A program made the translations under genes and the position numbers. Below, in pieces: positions 6,136 through 25,385 of a stretch of 64,000 nucleotides of DNA (positions within the stretch are counted from its first letter, which is position 1; each line of letters begins with the position of its first letter). The stretch spans positions 62,001 to 126,000 of IMG/VR virus record IMGVR_UViG_3300034782_000062, one strand, 5' to 3'. This DNA comes from a virus. Below the pieces are notes generated by a model. The model did not search any database. It had not been told where the DNA came from and saw nothing but the letters and a program-made list of their open reading frames with translations.

Positions 6136-6203
6136 TCTCCGGCAAATGTGGTTCAATCGTCCCCAGGATGATTGAGCGGGTTCGACCCCCGCGTCGGAGA
6201 CCG
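6136..6203 (+). ncRNA. tRNA-like element A (no D arm)
   Basis: An 8-bp closing stem (TCTCCGGC 6136-6143 with GTCGGAGA 6193-6200, one G-T pair) directly abuts a canonical T arm (GCGGG-TTCGACC-CCCGC, 6176-6192). Where D and anticodon arms would be there is a 9-base linker and one long hairpin (6153-6175) made of a palindrome copy with a CCA loop. The bases after the closing stem are CC. The T-loop and acceptor geometry are tRNA-like, but no 7-base anticodon loop exists, so this is not a decoding tRNA. It lies 45 bases before the next start codon. Confidence 0.55.
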
Positions 6204-6247
6204 GGAAACAACAGCCGGCAATGTATCAAGCCGGCAGGAGGGACAAC

Positions 6248-7326: not shown

Positions 7327-7393
7327 GCACGGCAAAGCAAGGATCGAACGTCCCCAGGACGGTCGAGCGGGTTCGACTCCCGCGCCGTGCCCC
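7327..7393 (+). ncRNA. tRNA-like element B (no D arm)
   Basis: A perfect 7-bp closing stem (GCACGGC 7327-7333 with GCCGTGC 7384-7390) abuts a perfect T arm (GCGGG-TTCGACT-CCCGC, 7367-7383). The rest is a linker and one palindrome-type hairpin (7344-7366), as in element A. The stem sequence differs completely from element A while the T arm is nearly identical, so structure and T loop are what is conserved. The 3' flank is CCC. No anticodon arm is present. Confidence 0.55.
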
Positions 7394-7425
7394 AAATCAT
7401 CCCCAGGACGAAGCGAACGGGACGC

Positions 7426-17993: not shown

Positions 17994-18057
17994 GACCAGG
18001 GTTTTCCAGATCATCTGGAGGACGGTGACCGGGGTTCGACTCCCCGGCCTGGTCCCA
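17994..18057 (+). ncRNA. tRNA-like element C (no D arm)
   Basis: A perfect 7-bp closing stem (GACCAGG 17994-18000 with CCTGGTC 18048-18054) abuts a 6-bp T arm (CCGGGG-TTCGACT-CCCCGG, 18029-18047). The stem is followed by CCA. Between them is one hairpin TCCAGA-TCA-TCTGGA and a 9-base linker. The D arm is absent and the anticodon-like loop is too small. It lies 11 bases before ATG 18069, the same relation to a gene start as the other leader elements. Confidence 0.6.
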
Positions 18058-18068
18058 AGGAGGTCTCA

Positions 18069-18880: not shown

Positions 18881-19484
18881 CATCCCAGCACCGCACGGAT
18901 ACGCCTTCGTGCTCAACAGCAACACCAGAAAGGGATCGCGCTTTCACCTGGCCGACGCGAGCGGTCGTCCCAAGTGCGGAACCAAGGTAGACGTCAGCGC
19001 CTTGGAGCGCGAATGGGAGATACCCGTCAGCTACGACCCCTGCAAAAGGTGTTTCCCGAAAGGAATCAATCCAATGAACGACGCCAATCATATGACTCCA
19101 GAAGAGTTCGACCGGGTCATGCTTCTCTCGTCCAACGGCGAGATTGAGTGTGATGGCATCGTCATCATCCCAACGGACAGGGTCGATCAGTCGGGCTACC
19201 GAATCATGGATTTTGTCGTCACCGTGACGCCGGATCGCAAGCCTGTGGGCCGCATCAGCGAACTCGGCATGAACGCGCACGACGTCTTCGAGCTGACCGA
19301 CATGCGCGGCACTCGGACTCGGTCCATCGGCGACGAGCCGGTACGGCTCCCCGAGTGGAAGTGCGACTGCCTTCAGCGCAGCGGCTTCCTCTATATCACT
19401 CCATCCTGGGGACGGATCAGGGTCAGCCACGACACGGCGACGGTCCACATCCGTCTCATCAGCAACGACGAGGCCCAGAAATGA
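18870..19484 (+). CDS. Hypothetical protein
   Basis: 204 residues; ATG 18870 overlaps the upstream gene by 11 bases. The N-terminus (residues 1-65) contains a small domain ending CKRCFPKG. Residues 70-200 are beta-rich. It overlaps the radical SAM gene start by four bases (ATGA), so these genes are coupled. The function is unknown. Confidence 0.55.
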   Translation: MKSNIPAPHGYAFVLNSNTRKGSRFHLADASGRPKCGTKVDVSALEREWEIPVSYDPCKRCFPKGINPMNDANHMTPEEFDRVMLLSSNGEIECDGIVIIPTDRVDQSGYRIMDFVVTVTPDRKPVGRISELGMNAHDVFELTDMRGTRTRSIGDEPVRLPEWKCDCLQRSGFLYITPSWGRIRVSHDTATVHIRLISNDEAQK

Positions 19485-20311
19485 ACGAGCGCTGCCAGTT
19501 CTGCATCGACCCGAAGTGCGAGGGGCGAAGAGATTGCGATTGCGAGAGCTGCGACAAGCGCGACTGCTGCTACCGCACTCTTCGCCCCACCATTCGGTTA
19601 ACTCTCAAATGCACCCAGAAATGTGGCCACTGCTGCTGGTCCTCATCACCCCAGCAGGATAAGCACATGCCCCCAGAGGTCGCAGAGCTGGTTCACCAGT
19701 TCCTCGACGCAAACCCCATCCACTCGGCGAACATCATGGGCGGCGAGTTCTGGCTCAACCCGGACTGGGAAGAAGTCCTGGGGATGATCGTTGAGGGGCT
19801 CGACTACGCTCGCCTAGTCACAAACGGCGACTGGGCCGCGGACGAACAGTCCTCAAGACAAGTCCTCGAATTCATGGAGTCCCACGAGCACTGCTTCCTC
19901 GCCATCACCACCGACAAGTGGCACACAAACAAACATGTGGTCACGGCAGAAGAGTTCTGCAAGGAGCACAACCTGCTTCACAAGGTCGGAGGCGACGAGA
20001 GCGACATGGGGATCGTTCCGGTCGGGCGCTCTGCGTTCGACATGAGCCTCTTCGGGATGATGGCTTGCTACTGCCACAACCCTGTTAACAAGTATACGTT
20101 CTTAATAGACGAGGACGGCGTCATCTATAAGTGCGCCTTCGGCACCTGGGACTACGATCGCGTCCACAACTTTGTCTCAGGTGGCTTCCCCGAGCGCTTC
20201 AAAGAGTTCAACGAAAAGTTCTACGGGATGTTCGTCGGGAGCTGCTCCCAGTGTCGCCGAGCCTACGCCTTCGGCACCAAAAGGAGCCGCGTTCAAGAGA
20301 TGGTCGGGTAG
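19481..20311 (+). CDS. Radical SAM protein with extra iron-sulfur cysteines
   Basis: 276 residues. The radical SAM motif CX3CX2C is at residues 44-51 (KCTQKCGHCCW). A GGE motif follows (NIMGGEFWLN) and later strands fit a partial TIM barrel. An N-terminal cysteine cluster (CQFCIDPKCEGRRDCDCESC) and a C-terminal set (ACYCHN, YKCAFG, GSCSQCRRAY) look like auxiliary SPASM/twitch-type cluster ligands. Such enzymes use S-adenosylmethionine to start radical reactions, often on peptides or nucleotides. The substrate is unknown. The gene overlaps its upstream neighbour and lies about 100 bases before the Cas12m gene. Confidence 0.75.
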   Translation: MNERCQFCIDPKCEGRRDCDCESCDKRDCCYRTLRPTIRLTLKCTQKCGHCCWSSSPQQDKHMPPEVAELVHQFLDANPIHSANIMGGEFWLNPDWEEVLGMIVEGLDYARLVTNGDWAADEQSSRQVLEFMESHEHCFLAITTDKWHTNKHVVTAEEFCKEHNLLHKVGGDESDMGIVPVGRSAFDMSLFGMMACYCHNPVNKYTFLIDEDGVIYKCAFGTWDYDRVHNFVSGGFPERFKEFNEKFYGMFVGSCSQCRRAYAFGTKRSRVQEMVG

Positions 20312-20315
20312 CACA

Positions 20316-20336
20316 GGCGTTCATCCCCAGGACGCC
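20316..20336 (+). repeat. Dispersed palindrome copy before the Cas12m leader
   Basis: GGCGT pairs with ACGCC around TCATCCCCAGG. The core CCCCAGGA is intact and the arms are a rearranged but still paired version. Confidence 0.5.
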
Positions 20337-20364
20337 CGTGGGATCGTGACCACCACTAATAAGT

Positions 20365-20395
20365 CCTGGTCACTCTGAGAAAGTGGCCAGGGCTC
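20365..20395 (+). ncRNA. Leader hairpin, loop class II-like, before cas12m
   Basis: A 10-bp stem CCTGGTCACT/AGTGGCCAGG (one T-G pair) around CTGAGAA, followed by GCTCC and the ribosome site AAGGAGG. It belongs to the same family as the hairpins before other accessory genes, so the effector gene shares the phage's leader architecture. Confidence 0.6.
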
Positions 20396-20409
20396 CAAGG
20401 AGGCAACAA

Positions 20410-22146
20410 ATGTCCAGAACCATCGTTTTCAATTTTGGAGGCCGTGCACCAACAAAAAACGCACAGCTCGTTCATGACAACATCTACCACGGGCACAACT
20501 ACTACAATAAGCTCATCGAGCTAGAACGTTGTTACCGCAAGGCAATTCGCGCAGCCCAAGCCGAGTTCCCGGAGATCGCAAAAGCTCAGGCACTCTTCGA
20601 TAACGCTGAAGAGGCTGTTGACGGATTGATCGCGCTAAAAAAACTAGCCAAGTCAAGCGACTCAAGTATTACTCCACCAACGCCCGATGAAATGAAAAAG
20701 GCTGTTGCCGAAAAGAAGGCGGCGGCTGCAGCTCTCAAAGACGCCAAGGCCCCTCATGCTGATTCATTGCAAACCAAATACAAGGCAGCCAAGGATGAGC
20801 TAACGGCATCTATAAAAAAGGCTCGATCCGAGACCGAAACTTTCTGGGGAACCTATCTGTGCATCGAGCGAGCGTTTCAGCAAGCCAAGAAAGCAAAGCC
20901 TATTTTTAAGCCTGGCAAAAAGCGCCCCCCATGGACCGAACGGCCAGCGTGGCGAAAATGGACAGGCCATGGTGTTGTTGGCATGCAAATTCAGAATGGG
21001 ATGCCAGCAGAGAACCTGTTCAAACCTAACACGAGATGTTACATAGATCCCCTTCCAGCCAATGCGTACAACACGAACATTCCCCGTGGCCAACGCCGCA
21101 AGATGCAATACACAACCATCCATTTGCGCGTAGGATCTGAAAACAGAAAACCCATATGGGCTGACATCCCCGTTTACCTGCACCGGGGCTTTCCTGCTGG
21201 CGCGATTGTCAAATGGGTATGTGTTATCCGAACCCCATGGCATCAACATCAAGCCTACAAATGGCAGGTACAAATCACTCTTGAGGTCCCCGACGCTTTT
21301 CCAAAAACCAACAAAAAAGCCGTTGCCATTAATTTAGGTTGGCGCAAACTAGCCGATGGATCCCTTCGAGCAGCCACCTGGGTGGATACTGACGGTCAAT
21401 CGGGCGAGATTATTCTAAGCGACAAGGAATTCAGAGATCGTATTGAAAAATACAACAACCTACGATCGATTCGAGACAAACTGATCGATGAAATCCGGCC
21501 TAAGCTCATCATGTCCGGCATCAACTGCGCCAAATGGAAAAGCCCCGACTCTTTTCAAAAACTTTCTCGTCGCGAAGACTTAACCGACGAACAGAGCGCA
21601 ATTTTGAAACCCTGGGCCTACAAAGATAGGCATCTCAATTGGTATGCCCGTGGTGTAAAAAATGGCGCCCTAAACCACCGGCGCGATGTCTATCGAAAGT
21701 TCGCTCTTTACATAGCGACAAACTACGACATCATCATCGCCGAAAAATACGACATGAAGAACATTGTCGAAGACGAAGATCGGAAAAGAGGTCCAGCGGG
21801 TCAGCGGGTTGAAGCTGCCCCATCCATTGCCAGGCAGATCATCGGCAGCACCGCGACACGGCTCGGGTGTCACATTATCGAGGGCCAAACCACATATGCA
21901 ACCCAAGAGTGCTTTTTTTGCGGTTGCACAGAGCCATGGGATGCCTCTGGTAACATCATGCACACCTGCCAGGAATGTGGTGAACATTGGGACCAGGACA
22001 TCAACAATGCCAAGAACATGCTCGCGAGAGCCGCTGATGCAATCAACTCCCTGGACCCGCTCGCACCTAAAAAGTCAAAGAATTACGGATGGAAATCGGT
22101 ACAAGAAAAGAAAAAACAAGGAGATAACGAAGACCACACTGATTAA
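20410..22146 (+). CDS. cas12m: Cas12m-like type V CRISPR effector, probably nuclease-dead
   Basis: 578 residues; ATG 20410 behind AAGGAGGCAACAA. The length and segments match Cas12m (type V-M, formerly V-U1/C2c4) as I recall the Mycolicibacterium protein: an N-terminal region with a long helical pair, then RuvC-I VAINLGWR, KWKSP..F, KDRHLNWYARG..., RRDVYR, RuvC-II IIAEKYDM, a CX2C-X15-CX2C zinc ribbon (C501, C504, C520, C523) and RuvC-III WDQDINNAKNML. RuvC-I has Asn308 where active nucleases have Asp; Glu445 and Asp528/Asp530 are kept. Cas12m is known to process its own crRNA, need no tracrRNA, and silence DNA by binding. The array starts 64 bases downstream. The gene is visibly more AT-rich than its neighbours, suggesting transfer. 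Confidence 0.85.
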   Translation: MSRTIVFNFGGRAPTKNAQLVHDNIYHGHNYYNKLIELERCYRKAIRAAQAEFPEIAKAQALFDNAEEAVDGLIALKKLAKSSDSSITPPTPDEMKKAVAEKKAAAAALKDAKAPHADSLQTKYKAAKDELTASIKKARSETETFWGTYLCIERAFQQAKKAKPIFKPGKKRPPWTERPAWRKWTGHGVVGMQIQNGMPAENLFKPNTRCYIDPLPANAYNTNIPRGQRRKMQYTTIHLRVGSENRKPIWADIPVYLHRGFPAGAIVKWVCVIRTPWHQHQAYKWQVQITLEVPDAFPKTNKKAVAINLGWRKLADGSLRAATWVDTDGQSGEIILSDKEFRDRIEKYNNLRSIRDKLIDEIRPKLIMSGINCAKWKSPDSFQKLSRREDLTDEQSAILKPWAYKDRHLNWYARGVKNGALNHRRDVYRKFALYIATNYDIIIAEKYDMKNIVEDEDRKRGPAGQRVEAAPSIARQIIGSTATRLGCHIIEGQTTYATQECFFCGCTEPWDASGNIMHTCQECGEHWDQDINNAKNMLARAADAINSLDPLAPKKSKNYGWKSVQEKKKQGDNEDHTD

Positions 22147-22209
22147 TCTCGGACCCGCTCGAAAAACGGCATATACTTCAACGAAAAGACAAGGCATTCT
22201 GACAGTGCC

Positions 22210-22922
22210 GTCACAAAGGCTATCTCTACAGCCTATGAGTAGAGACATGTAGACGCTTCGCAAACATTCTGTCCTCAAAGGGGTCACAAAGGCTATCTCT
22301 ACAGCCTATGAGTAGAGACAAGTTAGAATTCTTGATCAAAATGCTTCCATTGTTAAGGTCACAAAGGCTATCTCTACAGCCTATGAGTAGAGACGGATAA
22401 ACAGCATCGTAAACTCCACCCTCTGACAGGTCACAAAGGCTATCTCTACAGCCTATGAGTAGAGACAGGACGAGAGGCCGCTGAGGAGCGAGATGTGCGG
22501 GCACGAGTCACAAAGGCTATCTCTACAGCCTATGAGTAGAGACCGGAGCAAGCCCAGGATGTACTCGTGCTCGAAGGACGAAGTCACAAAGGCCATCTCT
22601 ACGGCCTATGAGTAGAGACATCGGTTGTCTTCCTCTGTAAACGATATTTCCCGTCCTGTCATAAAGGCCATCTCTACGGCCTATGAGTAGAGACACTGTA
22701 GAGTAGGGCAGTCCGGTTCCGTTAGCTACGTCCGTCACAAAGGCTATCTCTACAGCCTATGAGTAGAGACTTGCTCCATTCTGAACCGAACCAAACTTGC
22801 GCCTTGGTTGTCATAAAGGCCATCTCTACGGCCTATGAGTAGAGACAGCCCAACTTCAGCACTGGTTCGAGCCGCCGATAGGTGTGTCATAAAGGCCATC
22901 TCTACGGCCTATAAGTAGAGAC
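22210..22922 (+). CRISPR. CRISPR array, 10 repeats of 37 bp and 9 spacers
   Basis: Repeats start at 22210, 22283, 22358, 22430, 22507, 22583, 22658, 22734, 22810 and 22886. Spacers are 35-40 bp. Each repeat begins GTCA(C/T)AAAGGC and ends GAGTAGAGAC. Repeats 1-5 and 8 read AGGCT...AGCCT, and repeats 6, 7, 9 and 10 read AGGCC...GGCCT: a compensatory pair. The last repeat has an extra G-to-A change, marking the distal end and giving the same direction as cas12m. A possible pseudoknot pairs positions 8-12 with 21-25 and 15-20 with 30-35. No cas1, cas2 or tracrRNA is nearby. No spacer match inside the window was noticed by eye. Confidence 0.97.
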
Positions 22923-22973
22923 CGATAGAGATACGTCGACGCTGGGGTCACATAACAACACAGGAGGTACAAC

Positions 22974-23639
22974 ATGACCAATGAATTCGAGCGAATACTC
23001 CCCCCCGAGGTTGCCGCCGCCGTCCAAACCGGCAGGGCGTCCCTCATGGGCGGACTCATCCAGAGAATCAAGGATGGCAAGGAACAACTTTCGGCAGAGG
23101 ACCAATCAGAGATACTCGCATTGGTCCAAGACCTCATCAACGAGGGCCAGTCCGACAAGTCCCTCATTGAGGAGTCCGAGGCGCAACTCAAGAACCTCAC
23201 CGAAAACGTCAAGGGCACCCTCAAACTGGTAACGGAGCTGACCGAGCACATGCACCAGCTCAGGCTCTCACCTGACAAGCGCCATCTTCAGGACGACTCG
23301 ATCGAGAAATCCTGCAGGCGCGACCTCGAAGAGCACCACGACAAGATTCTTCGAGCCAAGCTCGTCATGGGCTACCGTGGCAACGACTCCGTCGAGGTCA
23401 CCTGCGACCCCCCGGCGCTCGTCCGGGTGACGCAGAAAGACGACGGCCAGTTCATCAACTGGACGACTCACGATTTCGCGGATCCGAACTGGGACGTCGA
23501 GCTTGTAAAGCCACATCCTGCTCTTGAAGGCGTCCGCTCTCTGTGGGTCGATGGCATCAGCCGATCGAGGACGGGAGAGGTTGAGCACCCCGACTGGGAG
23601 ATCGTTTCCAAGGGCTCGCTCAACGCAGATGTTCCTTGA
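22974..23639 (+). CDS. Hypothetical protein after the CRISPR array
   Basis: 221 residues; ATG behind ACAGGAGGTACAAC. Residues 1-95 are helical with heptad-like spacing (LKNLTENVKGTLKLVTELTE), and residues 130-215 are beta-rich with several tryptophans. No Cas family is recognised. GC content returns to that of the phage, so it is probably an ordinary phage gene and not part of the CRISPR system. Confidence 0.6.
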   Translation: MTNEFERILPPEVAAAVQTGRASLMGGLIQRIKDGKEQLSAEDQSEILALVQDLINEGQSDKSLIEESEAQLKNLTENVKGTLKLVTELTEHMHQLRLSPDKRHLQDDSIEKSCRRDLEEHHDKILRAKLVMGYRGNDSVEVTCDPPALVRVTQKDDGQFINWTTHDFADPNWDVELVKPHPALEGVRSLWVDGISRSRTGEVEHPDWEIVSKGSLNADVP

Positions 23640-23689
23640 CTTCTATCGTCCACTCCTCGGCATCAAGTAATTTTTTTCGGTTATCGGGG

Positions 23690-23717
23690 TTGACAGCCCC
23701 CTAGGGGGTGTTATTCT
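23690..23717 (+). promoter_or_regulatory. Sigma70-type promoter with palindromic operator in the spacer
   Basis: TTGACA (23690-23695), a 16-base spacer and TATTCT (23712-23717). The spacer contains CCCCCTAGGGGG (23697-23708), a perfect 12-base palindrome placed where a repressor or a MerR-type activator would bind. Transcription would start near 23724, inside a gene-free stretch. Confidence 0.7.
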
Positions 23718-23723
23718 TTCTGT

Positions 23724-24018
23724 GGGATTTGTAAAAGCCAGTGATGAGGCGATAGAGTCGGTCCCCCCCCATCGACTTTGTCGCCTCATCCATTTAAAAC
23801 GAAGGGAACAAGGTTCGAGGGCTGATACCGGCCCGCCACAACGAAGCGCTTCGTTCAAAAAAAGGACCCATAAGACTCGCGGGGGCGCGTATGCACGCAA
23901 CGCAAACCCTCCCCCCCGACGAAATGGCCAGCGCGCCGGTGTCAGCCTTCGGCCCTTGCCCCCGGAACCTGTCCCCCCAGTGCCCCTCGGTTTGCTGCAG
24001 CCGAGGGGCACACTTTTT
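23724..24018 (+). ncRNA. Candidate small RNA, about 295 nt, with C-rich loops
   Basis: It is bounded by the promoter at 23690 and an intrinsic terminator ending at 24018. No convincing gene lies between; an open frame from GTG 23722 has no ribosome site. A strong 5' hairpin (23743-23752 with 23781-23790, inner stem 23755-23760 with 23773-23778) presents a loop of eight C (23763-23770). Further C tracts are at 23907-23917 and 23973-23978. C-rich loops in bacterial regulatory RNAs commonly pair with Shine-Dalgarno sequences, and this phage uses GGAGGGAC sites. The targets are inferred, not shown. Confidence 0.55.
23980..24018 (+). terminator. Rho-independent terminator
   Basis: A perfect 11-bp stem GTGCCCCTCGG/CCGAGGGGCAC around TTTGCTGCAG, followed by ACTTTTT. 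Confidence 0.85.
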
Positions 24019-24027
24019 AAGGGGTGA

Positions 24028-24045
24028 CCACTTCTGTCATAGTGG
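24028..24045. promoter_or_regulatory. Inverted repeat upstream of the nuclease gene
   Basis: CCACT and AGTGG separated by eight bases, followed within 15 bases by a TATATC that could be a -10 box. It may be an operator for the 24099 gene; the -35 region is not convincing. Confidence 0.3.
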
Positions 24046-24098
24046 AAAGTTAGTATATCCTTACAACATCCACAAAACCGACAGGAGGGAAATTCATC

Positions 24099-25385
24099 AT
24101 GAGGACGAGCGACAGCGCTCTTGAACAGTACGAAGAATGTCCAAGGCAATACGACCTGGAGCGCAACCAGAAAAAGCGTGGGAAGCCAACCGCTCCCATC
24201 CGGCTCGGCAGAGTCGTTCACCGAACAATTCAGAAGCTCCTCAAGAAGTACAAGGAAGCGGGAGAGGCCAAGCCCTTCGACGCTTCACTCGCCTCCGACA
24301 TCTACACCGAGGAATGGGGGAAGGAGCTGGGTCTGAGCGGCAAAGAGCTTTTTACCGACGGACTGCAGATCGTCGCCGACTGGGTTGAGAAGTGGAGCAT
24401 CCCTCTCGACCCCCACTCCATCCTCGGCATCGAGGAGCCCTTCAAGTTCACCATTGAGTATCGTCCCCAGGATGATGAGTATGATGACGAGGAGGAAGAG
24501 GAAGAGACGGCGATCGAGCCCAGCAACCTCATGCCCGTGGAGGTTGTCGGCTACCTAGACCTTGTCCTCGGACACGATCTAGTAGACGAGGAGACGGGCG
24601 AAGTCGAGACTCTCATCGAAGTCATCGATTGGAAGACGACCAAGGCGTTTCTCACGAGCCGGGACGCACAAGAGTCGCTCCAACTCTCCATCTACGATCT
24701 CGCCGCTCGCGAGAAGTGGCCTGACGCCAGGGCCTACCGCGCCGCACTCAATCTGCTGCGTGACGGCACTCACCTTCAGGTTCGCCACAGCACCGCCGAG
24801 CGCCGCGACACCGAACGATACATCCTGGCGACGGCGGCTCAGATACGCGACGAGCGAGAGTGGGCTCCACGGCTCAACTCCAACTGCACCTACTGTCACC
24901 ACCGCCACGACTGCCCCGCCTACCAAAAAGCCCTCAAGGGCGACAGCCACACCGTCGCCGAGGACATGAATGACTTTGACAAGCTCATCGAGGAGCGTGC
25001 TGCGCTTGCAATCCGAAAGAAGATCGTCGGCAAGCGGCTCGACGAAATCGACGACGTCATCAAGGCACACCTCAAATCATCCAAACACCCGCTGGAGATC
25101 GGCGGCTGGTTCTTCAAGCTCTCATCTGTCGAGCGAAAGAACTATCCAGCCGACGTCGTCATCCCACTGCTCGCTCACAAGTTCGACATAAGCCCCGCCG
25201 AGCTGCTCGCCGACCTGACGACTGTCTCCACAAAGAAGCTCAAGGAGCTGATGAAGACCAAAGCCGAAGAGCTTGGGCGCGAGAAGGTCAGCCTCGTACA
25301 AGCCACCCTTGAAAGCAAAGCCGAACGCAACTACTCCTCTCGGCTGTACAACCGAAAGGAGAAGAAGCCCAAACCCAAGAAATAG
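24099..25385 (+). CDS. PD-(D/E)XK nuclease, RecB/Cas4-like with Fe-S cysteines
   Basis: 428 residues; ATG behind ACAGGAGGGAAATTCATC. The start SDSALEQYEECPRQYDLE is the PDDEXK_1 opening with the first cluster cysteine. The nuclease core follows: GRVVH, then VVGYLDLVLG (Asp), IEVIDWKTTK (Asp..Lys) and QLSIYDLAA. The remaining cysteines CTYCHHRHDCP complete a likely 4Fe-4S site. The C-terminal 140 residues are helical. Phage members act as recombination exonucleases, often with a helicase; an SF2 helicase lies 2 kb downstream. Although Cas4-related, it is a general phage enzyme and not evidence of adaptation. A palindrome copy lies in the coding sequence near 24463. Confidence 0.8.
   Translation: MRTSDSALEQYEECPRQYDLERNQKKRGKPTAPIRLGRVVHRTIQKLLKKYKEAGEAKPFDASLASDIYTEEWGKELGLSGKELFTDGLQIVADWVEKWSIPLDPHSILGIEEPFKFTIEYRPQDDEYDDEEEEEETAIEPSNLMPVEVVGYLDLVLGHDLVDEETGEVETLIEVIDWKTTKAFLTSRDAQESLQLSIYDLAAREKWPDARAYRAALNLLRDGTHLQVRHSTAERRDTERYILATAAQIRDEREWAPRLNSNCTYCHHRHDCPAYQKALKGDSHTVAEDMNDFDKLIEERAALAIRKKIVGKRLDEIDDVIKAHLKSSKHPLEIGGWFFKLSSVERKNYPADVVIPLLAHKFDISPAELLADLTTVSTKKLKELMKTKAEELGREKVSLVQATLESKAERNYSSRLYNRKEKKPKPKK

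What the first reader, a model, noticed from the sequence alone, without database searches (positions are those of the whole stretch)
20410..22922. A phage-encoded Cas12m CRISPR system: effector gene and array, nothing else
A 578-residue protein with Cas12m-like segments sits 64 bases upstream of a 10-repeat array, with phage genes on both sides. Type V-M systems are known mainly from bacterial genomes, where Cas12m binds DNA without cutting it. A phage-carried copy would be a mobile, hypercompact, programmable silencer that could shut off genes of rival phages, plasmids or the host during infection. Nothing within the window provides spacer acquisition.
Basis: partly seen in the sequence, partly recalled or inferred. 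Interest (0 to 1): 0.95.

Follow-up and report, generated by a model that had tools for sequence, protein, structure and literature searches.

The report
Phage-type Cas12m gene silencer with array
A large, probably viral, DNA element carries a small CRISPR protein that very likely binds DNA without cutting it, next to its own list of nine targets; such virus-borne systems were already in print, so this is a good new example and not a new kind.

Summary
In detail: a 578-residue effector (20410-22146) is followed after 63 nt by ten 37-nt repeats with nine 35-40 nt spacers (22210-22922). The effector is Cas12m (subtype V-M): a solved Cas12m is its best sequence match, Cas12m2 its best structural match, and its RuvC triad is N308-E445-D530. 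The repeats fit the stem-plus-pseudoknot handle known for Cas12m. A Cas1 search of the 182,770-base IMG/VR virus record found none. Third-position GC of 0.53, against 0.70-0.86 in eight other genes, points to recent acquisition. Best reading: an RNA-guided, non-cutting DNA-binding silencer. No spacer target was found, so what it silences is unknown. Virus-borne V-M is in print (24 virally encoded Cas12m-associated effectors within 10 kb of arrays, PMC12607003), so this is a new member of a known kind. The record's phage nature is probable, not shown: no large terminase was recognised. Four other viruses (five records) carry relatives; one cassette sits inside a phage head-gene module. In one relative, Cas12m-type handles are scattered over the genome, often before gene starts; that lead is more surprising than the finding itself.

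The parts
20397..20403 (+). Shine-Dalgarno-like AAGGAGG, 6 nt before the ATG
   Evidence: read
20410..22146 (+). cas12m, 578 aa
21331..21333 (+). codon N308, first RuvC triad position (Asp in nuclease-type RuvC)
   Evidence: the aligned residue of L012 is D274, the number of the residue mutated in MsCas12m (PMC11013384)
21742..21744 (+). codon E445, second RuvC triad position
21997..21999 (+). codon D530, third RuvC triad position
21181..21186 (+). codons H258-R259, aligned to an HR pair of MmCas12m2; His269-Arg270 of that protein are reported to contact the last base C(-1) of the crRNA handle
   Evidence: PMC10442227 passages; that the aligned pair is 269-270 is inferred
21910..21978 (+). zinc ribbon of the TNB domain, Cys 501, 504, 520, 523
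22147..22209 (+). 63-nt gap, presumed leader
22210..22922 (+). CRISPR array: 10 repeats of 37 nt, 9 spacers of 35-40 nt
22218..22246 (+). handle of repeat 1: stem GGCT/AGCC interlaced with pseudoknot stem CTCTAC/GTAGAG, ending AC; same geometry in all ten repeats
22583..22694 (+). repeats 6 and 7 (with the spacer between), in which stem pair T-A is exchanged for C-G; repeats 9 and 10 likewise

Best explanation
A two-component subtype V-M CRISPR system on a large, probably phage, genome. The array is transcribed with the + strand genes. Cas12m itself cuts the precursor within the repeats, as reported for MsCas12m, and keeps a crRNA whose handle is a stem plus pseudoknot ending in AC. The ribonucleoprotein binds PAM-flanked DNA and blocks transcription without cutting. 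The cassette arrived recently by horizontal transfer and has a fixed spacer list, or one extended by Cas1-Cas2 supplied in trans. The likely use is to hold down competing phages or plasmids, or host genes, during infection. Shown here: gene, family, triad, array, handle geometry, no Cas1 match, deviant codon use. Inferred from characterised Cas12m: processing, DNA binding, silencing. Guess: the targets.
For: Sequence: best PDB match 23vw 'CRISPR-associated DNA-binding protein Cas12m', E 4.2e-54 over residues 5-540; Cas12m2 8hio 4.2e-25. PADLOC Cas12u1 (V-U1, now V-M) 5.8e-84. Structure: model of mean pLDDT 68.5; Cas12m chains take the first four rows of both lists, Z 19.1, 19.0, 18.6 and 15.9, then TnpB 14.3. 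Tree: sits with two IMG/VR Cas12m (100/98), five viral Cas12m together (86/83), apart from three TnpB-type rows. Triad N-E-D; N-E-D is listed among Cas12m clades in PMC10442227, and DED, HDD and NDD variants are reported without dsDNA nuclease activity in PMC11013384. Handle as in the Cas12m2 structure text. Acquisition: GC3 0.526 against 0.704-0.863 in eight other genes.
Against: No target for any of nine spacers (three of the nine also). I read of no assay of an N-E-D member. The both-sided change in the repeat stem is one pair among four distinct repeats, and 121 of 500 shuffles reach it. The replicon has no recognised large terminase. PADLOC's other best profile for the same protein is labelled Cas12f (1.1e-84).
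Confidence: 0.83

Rival explanations
1. The same V-M system, but the replicon is a large plasmid or other extrachromosomal element wrongly classed as virus.
For: V-M is described as strongly enriched in plasmids (PMC11656645, passages). No large terminase or tail sheath was found, nor a head protein by Pfam in 10 long ORFs. 41 plasmid records have a tblastn match, 2 of them over 80% of the query; many of the rest are TnpB.
Against: Virus record of IMG/VR; integrase 1.2e-40; recombination-directionality-factor-like protein 5.3e-31; small-terminase PHROGs, each matched by 1 of 52 proteins; short virion-structural and tail-fibre PHROG matches; 31 tRNAs plus tmRNA, although large putative plasmids can have such suites too (PMC7162821). 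Missing model hits say little: Rctr197k, Caudoviricetes in GenBank with annotated head-morphogenesis and terminase-like genes, has no match to PF17289, PF03237 or phrog_675 either.
Confidence: 0.2
2. The effector is a working nuclease or nickase of the TnpB/Cas12f kind, and the N at position 308 does not abolish cutting.
For: A PADLOC profile labelled Cas12f scores as well as Cas12u1; E and D of the triad are kept.
Against: NCBIfam TnpB models stay below their cut-offs: 52.6/100, 36.8/425, 21.8/350 bits. Cas12m is best by sequence and structure. Even D-E-D Cas12m is reported not to cut dsDNA (PMC11013384).
Confidence: 0.07
3. A stranded cassette: taken up with its array but not expressed or not useful to the element.
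For: No matching spacers found; codon use not yet adapted; repeats 6, 7, 9 and 10 differ from the rest.
Against: Intact frame with a good ribosome-binding site. The ten repeats keep every pair of both stems. Effector followed by array recurs in three other viral records.
Confidence: 0.1

Closest known systems
Characterised Cas12m: MmCas12m2 (PDB 8hhl/8hio/8hhm), the Cas12m of 8pm4, MsCas12m (presumably L012 here, Allomeiothermus silvanus plasmid), 23vw
   Same: Size, domain order, zinc ribbon, His-Arg pair, pseudoknot handle, array downstream, non-standard or inert triad
   Different: Triad N-E-D, where Cas12m2 has H-D-D and L012 D-E-D; identity 23-28% to six of the seven other rows of alignment A1; carried by a virus-class record, not a plasmid
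Virally encoded Cas12m-associated effectors of landfill viruses (PMC12607003; section 12 and passages read)
   Same: 24 ORFs on the Cas12m branch within 10 kb of viral arrays; none of the phages with highlighted effectors had acquisition genes
   Different: Their sequences were not seen here, so identity to this one is unknown
Type V-U and CasPhi systems of huge phages, including a proposed silencing 'dCas14' (PMC7162821, passages)
   Same: Phage-borne compact type V effector with short array, acquisition genes lacking in almost all, proposed repression
   Different: Other subtypes or unspecified V-U variants
Virus Rctr197k Cas12m (KX853510, annotated 'similar to transposase') and IMG/VR relatives L024, L025/L026, L048
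   Same: Cas12m next to Cas12m-type repeats in viral records
   Different: 27-38% identity to the window protein; Rctr197k has D-E-D; L025/L026 has scattered units, not one array

Membership tests
Cas12m (subtype V-M) | Closest relative by sequence is a characterised Cas12m | tested here: met
   23vw Cas12m 4.2e-54, Cas12m2 4.2e-25; PADLOC Cas12u1 5.8e-84
Cas12m (subtype V-M) | Fold closest to Cas12m among solved Cas12 and TnpB | tested here: met
   Z 19.1 (rmsd 13.8 over 509) and 19.0 for Cas12m chains, 14.3 for TnpB; model only pLDDT 68.5, pTM 0.41, so domain placement is unsure
Cas12m (subtype V-M) | RuvC triad among those recorded for the family (such as HDD, DED, NDD, NED) | tested here: met
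   N308-E445-D530; lists in PMC10442227 and PMC11013384
Cas12m (subtype V-M) | crRNA handle of stem plus pseudoknot ending AC | tested here: met
   geometry met by all ten repeats; RNA not examined, and single-strand folding without pseudoknots shows one stem or the other
Cas12m (subtype V-M) | Adjacent array, no adaptation genes | tested here: met
   no Cas1 in the record; Cas2 and Cas4 not tested
Cas12m (subtype V-M) | No tracrRNA | tested here: inconclusive
   No anti-repeat among the 13 inverted-repeat pairs of 12 nt or more in 19500-24500; RNA not examined
Cas12m (subtype V-M) | PAM-dependent dsDNA binding, silencing, no cutting | not testable with these tools
   needs bench work
TnpB | Reaches NCBIfam TnpB cut-offs | tested here: not met
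   52.6/100, 36.8/425, 21.8/350 bits
Cas12f | Best profile is Cas12f | tested here: inconclusive
   PDLC01692 labelled Cas12f 1.1e-84 beside Cas12u1 5.8e-84; solved Cas12f chains score lower than Cas12m
Tailed phage (the carrier record) | Large terminase, portal, capsid genes | tested here: inconclusive
   0 hits in the record for PF17289, PF03237, phrog_2 (terminase by recall), phrog_675 and the sheath phrog_279; partial phage features

The most novel reading that the evidence does not exclude
Viral Cas12m forms its own branch whose handle RNAs are being moved from arrays into the virus's own transcripts. In the relative phage IMGVR_UViG_3300014613_000001, Cas12m-type handles stand in many intergenic spots, 16 of 37 of them 13-71 nt before an SD-like motif plus start codon. 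There Cas12m may bind or cut phage mRNAs at their leaders, or take mRNA leaders as guides, making it a regulator of the phage's own genes. The window's system would be the array-bearing form of that branch.
Probability: 0.2. Interest if true: 0.85.

Novelty: new member of a known kind. Interest (0 to 1): 0.42.

Why it matters
It adds a divergent N-E-D Cas12m with its own handle and nine guides to the small set of non-cutting Cas12 effectors, on a probable phage carrier. Relatives in five viruses (the window's included), whose genomes otherwise share little where they could be compared, suggest that non-cutting CRISPR silencers circulate among large phages; spacer targets from the same samples would test this. 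The scattered handles in one relative would, if functional, mean a CRISPR effector turned into a regulator of the phage's own genes.

Tried and rejected
Targets: the whole array against 50,697 phage and 72,556 plasmid records gave nothing in phages and four Rhodococcus plasmids at E 9, a match that runs from the repeat into spacer 9 and was judged chance. Exact scans of IMG/VR with 22-29 nt of spacers 1, 3 and 5 gave none; the other six spacers were not scanned there. In the own record the best match has 13 mismatches in 35 nt. Spacers of four arrays against the loci then held gave only copies inside L048's own array and weak chance-like matches.

Same repeat elsewhere: 0 in IMG/VR and 0 in GTDB genomes, exact patterns only. 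First protein scan of IMG/VR with the window protein alone: 4 pattern matches, no relative. GTDB genomes by protein: 13 pattern matches, none a relative; that scan rests on two short peptide patterns, so absence is weak evidence. A first alignment was too diverse to scan with. No host could be named. An HNH search and Rfam (no match) did not help.

Phage proof by terminase, portal and capsid models failed for the window's record; Pfam and PHROG lists over many genes were capped at 25 families. phrog_2 was chosen from memory as a terminase family and no call names it. Two long ORFs found no phage relative by tblastn.

Tree: L014 (shorter, near copy of L011) and L026 (same phage as L025) were left out. 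Support for one viral branch is modest, and viral rows were found with viral queries, so sampling favours it. Four rows have long branches.

G001 counts use my own simple gene caller. 21 of 37 units have an SD-like motif plus start codon within 90 nt, against 13.8% of 4000 random places; in five of the 21 the motif is part of the next unit, leaving 16. G002 (same phage) was not counted.

Full report
What is there. The frame 20410-22146 encodes 578 residues behind AAGGAGG. After 63 nt come ten 37-nt repeats, start-to-start 72-77 nt, with nine spacers of 35-40 nt. The repeat pattern matches nowhere else in the record. The window is bases 62001-126000 of an IMG/VR virus record of 182,770 bases.

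What the protein is. PADLOC puts it equally on a profile named Cas12f (1.1e-84) and one named Cas12u1 (5.8e-84). V-U1 is the old name of V-M (PMC11013384, passages). The label conflict is settled by solved proteins: 23vw, named Cas12m, matches residues 5-540 at 4.2e-54, then two Cas12m2 sequences at about 4e-25 and 8pm4 at 9.2e-21. Above its cut-off Pfam finds only the Cas12f1-like TNB domain. TnpB models of NCBIfam stay below cut-off. An AlphaFold2 model from four sequences (pLDDT 68.5, pTM 0.41) matches Cas12m chains first in both structure lists; rmsd is large (13.8 over 509 residues), so this supports family and fold, not domain placement.

Active site. In alignments A1 and A3 the triad is N308-E445-D530. 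The first position is aligned with D274 of L012, which fits MsCas12m, whose D274 was substituted in PMC11013384. PMC10442227 (passages) lists NED among Cas12m triads, so the triad is not new; the Paraburkholderia plasmid protein L016 reads N-E-D too. L024, L025 and L048 also show N-E-D and Rctr197k D-E-D (read). The four zinc-ribbon cysteines are kept.

Handle. Each repeat can form GGCY/RGCC (columns 9-12 with 21-24) interlaced with CTCTAC/GTAGAG (15-20 with 30-35), then AC. This resembles what is described for Cas12m2: a six-pair pseudoknot ending at G(-3), then A(-2), C(-1), stacked on a stem; the 5' side of the pseudoknot lies one base further up here. All 40 cells pair, against 27.5-50% when slid. 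Six repeats have T-A and four C-G at the last stem pair, a change on both sides, but with only four distinct repeats this is weak: 121 of 500 shuffles equal it. Plain folding of one strand gives one stem or the other. The same geometry, with other letters, is found by one scan in the arrays of Rctr197k (18 hits) and L024 (10) and in G001 (25, of which three look unrelated; 2.0 in shuffles). It can also be read by eye in the repeats of plasmid loci L012 and L013.

Origin. cas12m has GC 0.496 and GC3 0.526; eight other window genes have GC3 0.704-0.863. The array has GC 0.491 and the spacers range from 0.29 to 0.68. This fits a recently acquired cassette with spacers of mixed origin. No Cas1 was found in the record.

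Carrier. For phage: virus record of IMG/VR; integrase; recombination-directionality-factor-like protein, SSB and thymidylate kinase; small-terminase and KilAC matches; short virion-structural PHROG matches; 31 tRNAs and one tmRNA. Against or open: no large terminase, tail sheath or head protein recognised by the models tried. I hold a phage at about 0.8.

Relatives. The phage collection holds one full-length relative, Rctr197k (29.5% over 96%), whose gene is annotated 'similar to transposase' next to an annotated CRISPR. IMG/VR scans gave L024, L025/L026 (one phage, two records) and L048. L024 has its Cas12m and ten repeats between a head-morphogenesis gene and a head-maturation protease, with portal (1.8e-54) and major head protein (2e-42) nearby: a Cas12m cassette inside a phage head module. 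G001, the record of L026, has a large terminase (3e-49) and a sheath-like protein (8.2e-6). Apart from Cas12m, the 187 genes called in the window's record give only five further matches at E 1e-4 in all of G001 and the fetched parts of L010, L048 and L024, so the carriers look largely unrelated. In the tree the five viral rows fall together (86/83), the window with L024 and L025 at 100/98.

Function. PMC11013384 and PMC10442227 (abstracts and passages) report that Cas12m binds PAM-flanked DNA, silences transcription, protects against plasmids and phages, and processes its own crRNA independently of RuvC. I extend this to the window by homology. No spacer target was found, so rival phage, plasmid and host genes remain equal guesses.

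Novelty. PMC12607003 (section 12 read) reports 24 virally encoded effectors associated with Cas12m, taken from within 10 kb of viral arrays, and states that none of the phages with highlighted effectors had acquisition machinery. PMC7162821 (passages) reports V-U variants in huge phages and suggests repression by a 'dCas14'. PMC11656645 (passages) says V-M is enriched in plasmids and encoded by some prophages; PMC13232261 (passages) says plasmids and some viral genomes. Hence a new member of a known kind.

The lead outside the window. In G001, 37 units with at most five mismatches to three core forms lie on both strands; 32 are not inside genes of my simple gene calls, which cover 83%. Four of the other five lie in the 5' extensions of cas12m and of the next frame. 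Of 37, 21 are followed within 90 nt by an SD-like motif and start codon, five of these through the next unit, against 13.8% of random places. Stems exchange both sides together (CTGGGA/TCCCAG, CTGAGA/TCTCAG, CCGGGA/TCCCGG; ACC/GGT, GCC/GGC, GTT/AAC). Some form short runs with gaps of about 10-26 nt. In the record of L048 the repeat is confined to its array (27 of 27 hits within 2.6 kb), and in 150 kb of Rctr197k outside the array one chance-like hit appears. A caution: the window's record has its own family of 36 TCCCCAGGA motifs, 25 with stems of five or more pairs, several just before Shine-Dalgarno sites, without likeness to its CRISPR repeat, so leader hairpins may be a general habit of such phages. 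Two full-text searches, of which I saw the listings, showed no report of scattered Cas12m handles; this is weak evidence of absence.

Noticed in passing
G001 = IMGVR_UViG_3300014613_000001 (L026, L039-L047); also L025: Cas12m phage whose Cas12m-type handles are scattered: 37 units on both strands, 32 not inside called genes, many before gene starts, with stems that change on both sides together.
   Followed up: partly
window 3068-48916 and the rest of the record: 36 copies of a TCCCCAGGA motif, 25 with a stem of five or more pairs (0 in one shuffle), 29 of 36 on the + strand, several directly before a Shine-Dalgarno site; one at 20318-20333 before cas12m.
   Followed up: partly
window 6165-6204, 7356-7395, 18019-18058: Pieces like the T-arm and acceptor end of a tRNA (such as CGGGTTCGACTCCCGCG) beside such hairpins, though ARAGORN finds no tRNA in the window.
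   Followed up: no
L023 2145-18765: Cluster of 31 tRNAs and one tmRNA at the end of the record.
   Followed up: no
L024 2903-5414: Cas12m and ten repeats sit inside a phage head-gene module, between head morphogenesis and head maturation protease.
   Followed up: partly
L010 2939-4888: Rctr197k has a second TnpB-like gene followed by a separate annotated CRISPR with an unrelated repeat; it falls on a very long branch in the tree.
   Followed up: no
L048 7801-10403: 28 Cas12m repeats listed, with two identical neighbouring spacers and a near-copy pair, a sign of duplication inside the array.
   Followed up: no
L017 557-1540; by eye also window 19355-20311, L022 14098-14916 and 17607-18395: Radical-SAM protein (Pfam), and three more frames with a CxxxCxxC motif seen by eye, one of them directly before cas12m.
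   Followed up: no
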